From Marmoricola sp. URHB0036 (GTDB lineage: Bacteria; Actinomycetota; Actinomycetes; Propionibacteriales; Nocardioidaceae): a DNA stretch of 64,000 nucleotides. The translations under genes and the position numbers were made by a program. The notes under the pieces are model-generated. The model was given only the letters and a program-made list of their open reading frames with translations, was not told where the DNA came from and made no database searches. This document shows, piece after piece, positions 44,310 through 57,923 of this stretch; position 1 is the first letter of the stretch, and each line of letters begins with the position of its first letter. Where the stretch lies: assembly GCF_000426045.1 (NCBI RefSeq), contig NZ_KE384490.1, forward strand, positions 186,001-250,000. Direction: 5' to 3'.

Positions 44310-48263
<3,954 letters not shown>

Positions 48264-48310
48264 GGCCAGTTTCGCCTCTTCCGACACGCGTGTGTATGAG
48301 TACGTCGTCA

Positions 48311-48316
48311 AGGCTA
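48311..48316 (-). promoter_or_regulatory. -10 hexamer TAGCCT of kgd
   Basis: The predicted start near 48304 gives a leader of about 40 nt to GTG 48263. Confidence 0.45.
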
Positions 48317-48388
48317 GTCCCCACGGTGGGAGAACCGCAGGGCAGGAGCCCGAATCGGGCGTGGTGTAGCGAGCATCACGTTCGGAGC

Positions 48389-48450
48389 GCCTCCGGCAGG
48401 ATTCGAACCCGCGACACCTGGTACCGGAGTGCGGGAGAGCCTCTATCCCC
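48389..48450 (-). pseudogene. Truncated tRNA-Arg(CCG) copy 1
   Basis: A 3'-half copy: acceptor 3' strand, T-arm, variable loop and anticodon-stem 3' side including CCG, with one T-arm change (C-G rather than C-A in the stem), then a diverged stretch ending near the D-loop remnant. The 5' acceptor strand is missing. It lies 90 bp before copy 2. Confidence 0.8.
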
Positions 48451-48478
48451 CTGGACTCTGTTGCGTCGTTCGATTGGC

Positions 48479-48540
48479 GCCTCCGGCAGGATTCGAACCT
48501 GCGACACCTGGTACCGGCGATCGGCAGAGCCTCTATCCCT
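48479..48540 (-). pseudogene. Truncated tRNA-Arg(CCG) copy 2
   Basis: It is identical to the functional tRNA over the 3'-terminal 40 nt up to and including the anticodon; the rest is replaced by GATCGCCGG-type sequence and a GGGATAGAG D-loop remnant. Its 5' side reads GAGCCCTAAGGGATAGAGGC, which can form a new short hairpin. Confidence 0.82.
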
Positions 48541-48567
48541 TAGGGCTCGGTCGTGGGCTGGTGGAGC

Positions 48568-48630
48568 GCCTCCGGCAGGATTCGAACCTGCGACACCTGG
48601 TACCGGAGATCGGCAGAGCCTCTATCCCTT
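48568..48630 (-). pseudogene. Truncated tRNA-Arg(CCG) copy 3
   Basis: Nearly identical to copy 2 (GATCT in place of GATCG), with the same 3' flank as the functional gene, so copies 2 and 3 form an 89-bp tandem duplication. A 15-bp sub-duplication (TCCCTTAGGGCTCGG) separates copy 3 from the functional gene. Confidence 0.82.
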
Positions 48631-48670
48631 AGGGCTCGGTCCCTTAGGGCTCGGTCGTGGGCTGGTGGAG

Positions 48671-48743
48671 CGCCTCCGGCAGGATTCGAACCTGCGACAC
48701 CTGGTACCGGAAACCAGTGCTCTATCCCCTGAGCTACGGAGGC
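48671..48743 (-). tRNA. tRNA-Arg, anticodon CCG
   Basis: A full cloverleaf of 73 nt with discriminator G: acceptor GCCTCCG/CGGAGGC, D-arm GCTC-AGGGGATA-GAGC, anticodon stem CTGGT/ACCAG with loop TTCCGGT (anticodon CCG, reads CGG), 5-nt variable loop and T-arm GCAGG-TTCGAAT-CCTGC. No CCA is encoded. It sits 75 bp upstream of argS on the opposite strand and 5' of three truncated copies. Confidence 0.96.
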
Positions 48744-48805
48744 TTGCTGGCGCGCCGCGAAGACTACCGGCCGATATCCCCGCGAAGGAAACCGAGGAGC
48801 GCCGA

Positions 48806-48811
48806 TACGCT
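48806..48811 (+). promoter_or_regulatory. -10 hexamer TACGCT, leaderless argS
   Basis: Six nt precede GTG 48818, so the argS-lysA-hom-thrC-thrB operon probably starts with a leaderless gene. Confidence 0.5.
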
Positions 48812-48817
48812 GGGGCG

Positions 48818-50509
48818 GTGAATCCCGCCCAGCTCTCCGCCGCCGTCGTCGAGGCGCTCACCGCGCTCGTGGACGACGGTCGTCTCACCCTCACCGACGG
48901 CGTCCCGACCGAGGTGACGGTGGAGCGTCCGCGGCAGAAGGGACACGGGGACTACGCCACCAACGTGGCGCTCCAGCTGGGCAAGAAGGCGCTGGTCGAC
49001 GGGGCTGCCACCAACCCGCGTGCGCTCGGGGAGCTGCTGGCCGAGCAGCTGCGCGCGGCCCAGGGCATCAGCGCCGTCGAGGTGGCCGGTCCCGGCTTCC
49101 TCAACGTGACCGTCGAGGCCGGCGCGCAGGGTGAGGTCGCCGCCGACGTGGTGGCCGCCGGCGCGGCGTACGGCCAGAACGAGACGCTCGCCGGCACCCG
49201 CATCAACGTGGAGTTCATCTCCGCCAACCCGACCGGGCCGCTGCACCTGGGCCACACCCGGTGGGCGGTGGTGGGTGACGCGATCGCCCGGGTGCTCGCT
49301 GCCGCGGGCGCGGAGGTGTCGCGGGAGTTCTACATCAACGACCGCGGCAACCAGATGAACCTGTTCGGGGCGTCGCTGGAGGCGGCGGCGCTGGGTCAGC
49401 CCGTCCCGGACGACGGCTACCACGGCGAGTACGTCCACGACCTGGCCCAACAGGTCGTCGCCGAGAACCCCGCGATCCTCGACCTGCCCCCCGACGAGCG
49501 CGTGGTCGCGTTCCGGGAGGCCGGTTACGCGCTGCAGCTGCGCGAGCAGCGGGAGCAGCTCGAGGCGTTCCGGACCCACTTCGACGTCTGGTTCTCCGAG
49601 CGGTCGCTGCACGAGAACAACGCGGTCGTGGAGAACATCGAGAACCTGCGAGGGCAGGGACACCTGTTCGACGAGGACGGCGCGCTCTGGATGCGCACCA
49701 CCGACTTCGGCGACGACCGCGACCGGGTGCTGATCCGCACTGACGGCGAGCTGACCTACTTCGCCTCCGACACCGCCTACTACCTCGACAAGCGGGCTCG
49801 CGGGTTCGACATCTGCGTCTACCTGCTCGGCGCCGACCACCACGGCTACGTCCGGCGGCTGCAGGCGATGGCGGCATGCGCGGGCGACGACCCGTCGTAC
49901 AACCTCGACGTGCTGATCGGCCAGCTGGTCAAGATCATGAAGGACGGCGAGGAGCTGCGACTCTCCAAGCGGGCCGGGACGATGGTCACGCTGCAGGAGC
50001 TGGTCGACCTGATCGGCGTCGACGCGCTGCGCTACTCGCTGGCCCGCTACCCGGCGGACTCGCCACTCGTGCTCGACGTCGCCGAGATCACCAAGGCCTC
50101 CAACGACAACCCCGTCTACTACGTGCAGTACGGCCATGCCCGCACCTGCCGGATGATGGAGAACGCCGCCGACCTCGGCATGTCGCTCCCCGACCTGACG
50201 TCTGGCTTCGACCCGTCGCTGCTGTCCCACGAGCGGGAGGGCGACCTGCTGCGGGCGCTGGCCGAGTTCCCCCGCGTGGTGGCCACCGCCGCCGAGCTGC
50301 GCCAGCCGCACCGGGTGGCGCGCTACCTCGAGGACACGACGGCGATCTTCAACCGGTGGTACGACACCCGCGAGTGCCGGATGCTGCCGAAGGGCGACGA
50401 GCCGGTGGCGCCGGTCAACGAGGCCCGGCTGGTGCTGACAGTCGCCGCGCGGACGGTGCTCGCCAACGGCCTCGCGCTGCTCGGCGTCTCGGCACCGGAG
50501 CGGATGTAA
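48818..50509 (+). CDS. argS: Arginyl-tRNA synthetase
   Basis: A 563-residue class I synthetase. The N-terminal Arg-S domain binds the tRNA D-loop; the HIGH motif is H143LGH in ANPTGPLHLGHTRWAVVGD; the KMSKS-like loop is LRLSKRAGTMVTL; the C-terminal DALR anticodon domain starts near RALAEFPRVVATAAELRQP. It charges the adjacent tRNA-Arg(CCG) among others. The frame extends upstream through the tRNA array, which is not coding. First gene of the Lys/Thr operon. Confidence 0.96.
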   Translation: MNPAQLSAAVVEALTALVDDGRLTLTDGVPTEVTVERPRQKGHGDYATNVALQLGKKALVDGAATNPRALGELLAEQLRAAQGISAVEVAGPGFLNVTVEAGAQGEVAADVVAAGAAYGQNETLAGTRINVEFISANPTGPLHLGHTRWAVVGDAIARVLAAAGAEVSREFYINDRGNQMNLFGASLEAAALGQPVPDDGYHGEYVHDLAQQVVAENPAILDLPPDERVVAFREAGYALQLREQREQLEAFRTHFDVWFSERSLHENNAVVENIENLRGQGHLFDEDGALWMRTTDFGDDRDRVLIRTDGELTYFASDTAYYLDKRARGFDICVYLLGADHHGYVRRLQAMAACAGDDPSYNLDVLIGQLVKIMKDGEELRLSKRAGTMVTLQELVDLIGVDALRYSLARYPADSPLVLDVAEITKASNDNPVYYVQYGHARTCRMMENAADLGMSLPDLTSGFDPSLLSHEREGDLLRALAEFPRVVATAAELRQPHRVARYLEDTTAIFNRWYDTRECRMLPKGDEPVAPVNEARLVLTVAARTVLANGLALLGVSAPERM

Positions 50510-57741: not shown

Positions 57742-57923
57742 GCCCGATCTGACGGCCGTGCGCGCCGCGGCGTCGTACGAGGAACAGACCGGCACCTGCG
57801 AGCGTTGAGCAGGCGTCAAGGTCGATTCGCCCCCATGCGGTAGGCGATGGCACACTTGGACGCTGGCTCCGGTTCACGTACCCACACGGGTGCGACCCGG
57901 CGGCTGTAACCCGAGAGGAAACC

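What the first reader, a model, noticed from the sequence alone, without database searches (positions are those of the whole stretch)
48389..48743. Tandem array of three truncated tRNA-Arg(CCG) 3' halves beside the intact gene
The last 40 nt of the tRNA (anticodon through acceptor) recur three times downstream of the intact gene at 89-104 bp spacing, with 62-63 bp related in each unit. Copies 2 and 3 are nearly identical, including 3' flanks, and there is a further 15-bp sub-duplication. Each copy lacks the 5' acceptor strand and has a new D-arm-like hairpin instead. tRNA 3' ends are standard attachment sites for tyrosine integrases, and repeated integration and loss can leave att remnants; simple tandem duplication with decay is the alternative. 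If transcribed with the tRNA, the copies could also be tRNA-like RNAs. No integrase is in the window.
Basis: partly seen in the sequence, partly recalled or inferred. Interest (0 to 1): 0.75.

Follow-up and report, generated by a model that had tools for sequence, protein, structure and literature searches.

The report
Decayed tandem tRNA-Arg gene copies
Next to a normal arginine tRNA gene sit three worn-out partial copies whose tail ends stay identical to the working gene; they look like old gene duplicates kept alike by recombination rather than scars of inserted viruses, though one short conserved box in them is not explained.

Summary
The array is real: an intact tRNA-Arg(CCG) (48670-48743, minus strand) is followed by three units of 104, 89 and 90 bp, each ending in the tRNA's last 40 nt. 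The attachment-site reading is not supported. Of 341 family genomes, 82 carry this tRNA 3' half and 78 carry it once; the other four, all in the window's genus, have extra copies only in the same short tandem array. The left part of the window's units is itself a decayed tRNA 5' half (shuffle p 0.0002-0.007), unlike a real attR in the genus (p 0.40); in the other three species this similarity is weak (p 0.05-0.27). Units follow lineage-specific changes of their own tRNA (4 of 4 variable columns), and carriers are scattered on the tree. Similar arrays sit beside tRNA-Arg genes in three further genomes of the order. Best reading: an old tandem tRNA duplication, 5' half decayed, 3' half homogenised and copy number changed by homologous recombination. 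Unexplained: a box GAGGCTCT, absent from the tRNA, 8 nt before the conserved 3' half in all seven units of four species. Transcription and function are untested.

The parts
48670..48743 (-). intact tRNA-Arg(CCG), divergent from argS (start GTG 48818, +)
   Evidence: ARAGORN; Rfam tRNA 64.3 bits; ArgS by Pfam
48567..48670 (-). unit 1 (104 bp): decayed tRNA copy; 3' half at 48567-48606 identical to the tRNA
48478..48566 (-). unit 2 (89 bp); 3' half at 48478-48517 identical to the tRNA
48388..48477 (-). unit 3 (90 bp), most diverged; 3' half at 48388-48427 with one mismatch
48613..48622 (-). conserved box GAGGCTCTGC of unit 1
48524..48533 (-). conserved box GAGGCTCTGC of unit 2
48434..48443 (-). 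conserved box of unit 3 (GAGGCTCTCC, one change)
48625..48656 (.). 15-bp sub-duplication inside unit 1
   Evidence: TRF; direct repeats

Best explanation
An old head-to-tail duplication of the tRNA-Arg(CCG) gene. The extra copies lost their 5' half by decay and are pseudo-tRNAs; their 3' half (anticodon to acceptor end) is kept identical to the working gene by gene conversion or unequal crossing-over, which also multiplies units (units 1 and 2) and can delete the whole array by recombination between the tRNA 3' half and a distal copy, leaving a perfect tRNA. Shown: the copies, the decayed 5' similarity in the window, lineage-specific changes shared by tRNA and unit, patchy presence. Inferred: the recombination mechanism, the direction (loss rather than gain in sister species), and neutrality.
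For: Left part of the window's units resembles the tRNA 5' half (p 0.0002, 0.0018, 0.0068), as in arrays at other tRNA-Arg genes in G108 (0.0002), G122 (0.0002) and G401 (0.016); a true attR (G003) does not (0.40). All 4 columns in which the four carriers' tRNAs differ are matched by each carrier's own units. Units 1 and 2 are near copies of each other. Carriers are not a clade; G016 and G015, next of kin of carriers G004 and G021 (support 1.000, 0.992), lack the array. G016 has an exact array-free junction, and G004 keeps what I read as a decayed third unit there. Unit-like sequence is absent from 450 bp downstream in 32 of 32 array-free genomes examined (best score 27; 3 of 32 pass the 95th percentile of their own shuffles, none the maximum), as expected for clean deletion.
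Against: The box GAGGCTCT, not in the tRNA, is invariant in all 7 units while the rest of the left part is 27-63% identical; 2 of 100000 column shuffles give such a run. Neutral decay does not predict that. In G004, G018 and G021 the tRNA-like signal of the left part is weak (p 0.12/0.05, 0.19, 0.27), so for them the att control is not beaten. Shuffles were mononucleotide, and the left boundary of the G108, G122 and G401 tests was set by eye. Homology of copies ends at or within a few bases of the tRNA 3' end, which att sites also do. Recent re-duplication in each lineage could mimic concerted evolution. The tree mixes two ArgS types and covers 19 of 24 genus genomes.
Confidence: 0.6

Rival explanations
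1. att-site scars: repeated integration and loss of tyrosine-integrase elements, or of tiny integrative cassettes, at the tRNA 3' end; the box would be the recombinase's element-side site.
For: Each copy spans anticodon to 3' end, the same extent as the copy flanking a 5.4-kb island at tRNA-Arg(TCT) in G003 of the same genus. Exact empty sites in relatives: G016 against G004, G121 against G108. tRNA-Arg is a published accretion site for actinomycete integrative elements (PMC9513070, PMC3218068; passages seen). The box is conserved.
Against: No core copy outside the arrays in 341 family genomes; box plus core in 0 viral contigs and, of 341 family genomes, only in these four arrays. Spacers of 33-64 bp hold no gene. 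The window's left parts are tRNA-derived. No integrase near the array.
Confidence: 0.17
2. A functional element: read-through of the tRNA gives tRNA-like 3'-half RNAs (in the manner recalled for rtT RNA of the E. coli tyrT operon), or the box plus 3' half is a protein-binding DNA site.
For: Invariant box at fixed 8-nt spacing (7 of 7 units) and conserved 3' halves. Array follows the tRNA on the same strand with no terminator-like site found.
Against: Unit folds no better than shuffles (9 of 9 between z -0.41 and 1.21); the whole region z -1.33. No Rfam family reaches its gathering score on the units and RtT is not among the 13 matches to E 10. Absent from most close relatives; downstream genes differ (2-oxoglutarate dehydrogenase-type, Usp, DUF222). 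No expression data.
Confidence: 0.2

Closest known systems
Partial tRNA gene copies (attR) left by integrative elements
   Same: Copy of the tRNA 3' part downstream of the intact gene, from about the anticodon to the acceptor end (PMC9897764, passages seen; G003 example)
   Different: Here 78-104 bp units in tandem, no element between them, left side tRNA-like in the window, no distant copies
E. coli tyrT operon repeats / rtT RNA / tpr (recalled; only the 1981 and 1991 titles seen in a reference list; the 1991 paper is not held)
   Same: Tandem repeats downstream of a tRNA gene, each with the tRNA 3' end
   Different: Recalled units of 178 bp with 19 nt of tRNA, against 78-104 bp with 40 nt here; no Rfam RtT match; expression unknown here
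Tandem tRNA gene duplication with pseudogene decay and concerted evolution
   Same: Decayed 5' half, 3' half following the functional gene
   Different: Strongly one-sided conservation and an invariant extra box; recurrent at tRNA-Arg genes in the genomes found

Membership tests
att remnants of tyrosine-integrase elements | tRNA 3' end block repeated at the far end of an element | tested here: not met
   Blocks lie 78-104 bp apart with no element; 78 of 82 genomes with the block have it once
att remnants of tyrosine-integrase elements | sequence left of the block is the element's, unrelated to the tRNA | tested here: inconclusive
   Not met in G000 (p 0.0002-0.007); undecided in G004, G018, G021 (p 0.05-0.27); control attR p 0.40
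att remnants of tyrosine-integrase elements | cognate integrase in the genome, near the site | tested here: not met
   6 PF00589 matches in G000, none near the array and no tRNA-Arg within about 1.5 kb of any; an unlinked integrase acting in trans is not excluded
att remnants of tyrosine-integrase elements | precise empty site in relatives | tested here: met
   G016, G121; homologous recombination predicts the same
decayed tandem tRNA duplicates | similarity to the tRNA beyond the conserved 3' half | tested here: met
   window units p 0.0002-0.007; not significant in 3 other species except G004 unit 2 at 0.049
decayed tandem tRNA duplicates | copies no longer recognised as tRNA genes | tested here: met
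   ARAGORN calls only the intact gene; best tRNA-model match in a unit 14.5 bits against 29
rtT RNA (E. coli tyrT) | match to the Rfam family | tested here: not met
   not among 13 matches to E 10
rtT RNA (E. coli tyrT) | stable RNA processed from the tRNA transcript | not testable with these tools
   no expression data

The most novel reading that the evidence does not exclude
Each unit is a selected element: the box GAGGCTCT at fixed 8-nt spacing before a tRNA-Arg 3' half is recognised by a protein or RNA partner (recombinase, RNA-processing factor or regulator), making the array either a tiny mobile cassette of about 80-90 bp that inserts at tRNA-Arg 3' ends, or a source of tRNA-half RNAs that compete for tRNA-Arg processing beside argS.
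Probability: 0.2. Interest if true: 0.7.

Novelty: new variant of a known kind. Interest (0 to 1): 0.35.

Why it matters
Partial tRNA copies are commonly read as attR scars and used to delimit genomic islands (PMC9897764, passages). These arrays are a counter-example: short-spaced partial copies that come from the tRNA gene itself. If the box proves to be under selection, it points to an undescribed recognition site attached to a tRNA-Arg 3' half.

Tried and rejected
Searches for occupied sites: the anticodon-to-T-arm pattern in 341 family genomes and the T-loop-to-end pattern in 24 genus genomes. In one search, eight genomes outside the carriers have a second place scanned or listed: seven of those places, and G003's second, are intact tRNA genes by ARAGORN (tRNA-Arg(TCT), or tRNA-Lys in G016); one in G003 is the attR-like copy of a 5.4-kb island; G023's second place was not scanned. 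The G003 island: 7 ORFs within it were scanned, one matched (HTH_17) and no integrase was seen, so it is an island by its repeats, not by an identified integrase.

Box as a genome-wide repeat: GAGGCTCTGC in four genomes is no commoner than the reversed control (72 places against 122); 30 loci fetched plus 2 regions were read and only the array places are followed by a tRNA 3' half. The one non-genus hit of the genome-wide scan (Gemmatimonadota, L042) has no tRNA half after it and was dropped as chance.

Coding: the argS-strand ORF 48290-50509 runs open through the array as a spurious extension; dropped because argS starts at 48818 and the box shows no silent changes (inference). YrlA-like RNA: 16.2 bits against 69, dropped. 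CRISPR-like stepwise acquisition: dropped because units 1 and 2 are near copies. Class-wide search (394 genomes) found only G000 and G108.

Literature: searches found no description of such arrays in the library's listings; that is eight searches of an open-access library, not proof of absence.

Own errors: the ArgS query was in the wrong frame (start 48820) and was replaced (start 48818).

Full report
OBSERVATION. The intact tRNA-Arg(CCG) is at 48670-48743 on the minus strand, 74 bp from divergent argS (Pfam arginyl-tRNA synthetase domains). Downstream of it, toward the 2-oxoglutarate dehydrogenase-type gene at 44310-48311, lie units of 104, 89 and 90 bp. The last 41 nt equal the tRNA in units 1 and 2 and differ at one base in unit 3.

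DISTRIBUTION. In 24 genus genomes the pattern GAGGCTCTN8CCGGTACC occurs in four: G000 (3), G004 (2), G018 (1), G021 (1); in 341 family genomes again only these; in viral contigs never. The G021 contig ends inside its unit, so its copy number is a lower bound. The longer core CCGGTACC...TCCTG is present in 82 of 341 family genomes, once in 78 of them; the extra copies are all in the four arrays. 259 genomes carry no exact match to this core, so nothing is said about them.

TREE. On ArgS+LysA+ThrC from 19 of 24 genus genomes and two outgroup genomes, carriers are scattered; G004 pairs with array-free G016 (1.000) and G021 with array-free G015 (0.992). ArgS falls into two groups of about 57-62% and 71-78% identity to the window's, with carriers in both.

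WHAT THE UNITS ARE. Aligned against the tRNA 5' half, anchored at the conserved block, the left parts of the window's units score above shuffles (p 0.0002, 0.0018, 0.0068). So do those of other arrays found by a T-arm pair pattern in 391 genomes of the order (5 matching: G000, G018, G108, G122, G401): tRNA-Arg(TCT) in G108, tRNA-Arg(CCT) in G122, tRNA-Arg(CCG) in G401, p 0.0002, 0.0002 and 0.016. G004 (0.12, 0.049), G018 (0.19) and G021 (0.27) do not clearly pass. A real attR, at a 5.4-kb island in tRNA-Arg(TCT) of G003, gives 0.40. In all four tRNA columns that differ between carriers, units carry their own tRNA's letter. Three of these four changes are in G021 and are also in the tRNA of its relative G015, so the unit followed changes older than that split or was re-made after them.

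EMPTY SITES. G004 and G016 align across the site with the array exactly missing in G016; the 26 bp after G004's last unit read as a remnant of a third unit (my reading). G108's two units are exactly missing in G121, whose downstream flank begins at the same point; flanks there are 496 of 600 and 391 of 622 identical. Both loss by recombination and insertion predict this. Downstream of the tRNA, 32 of 32 array-free genomes examined show no remnant: best score 27, three slightly above their own shuffle 95th percentile, none above the shuffle maximum.

UNEXPLAINED. The box GAGGCTCT is invariant in seven units. In five taken as independent, it is the 8-column run among 10 invariant of 38 columns, reached by 2 of 100000 column shuffles; the other columns are 27-63% identical between units. 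The alignment was anchored on the block and the units were first grouped by this box, so the figure flatters it. The box is not in the tRNA, so conversion with the tRNA cannot hold it; exchange between species or selection could.

RNA. Nine units are no more stable than shuffles; the whole region has z -1.33. No promoter- or terminator-like site was found at 48100-49000.

VERDICT. Observation confirmed; att-remnant reading not supported; duplication with decay and concerted 3' halves most likely (0.6), function open.

Noticed in passing
47696-47822: 12-bp tandem repeat (10.6 copies) inside the 2-oxoglutarate dehydrogenase-type gene, giving a KAGD repeat in its N-terminal linker.
   Followed up: no
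48818-50509 and relatives: ArgS beside the tRNA comes in two diverged types within the genus (about 57-62% and 71-78% identity to the window's), suggesting replacement of argS in some species.
   Followed up: no
L175 (G003:C1:311089-316540): 5.4-kb stretch flanked by copies of the tRNA-Arg(TCT) 3' half; one HTH_17 protein among 7 ORFs scanned, no integrase seen.
   Followed up: partly
L126/L130, L127, L125: Short-spaced partial tRNA copies also beside tRNA-Arg(TCT), (CCT) and (CCG) in three other genomes of the order; whether tRNA-Arg is favoured is unclear because the pattern fixed one T-arm sequence.
   Followed up: partly
48290-50509: Spurious open frame runs through the array into argS; an annotation hazard.
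   Followed up: no
57863-57905: L31-Actinobacteria ribosomal protein leader, 47.4 bits.
   Followed up: no
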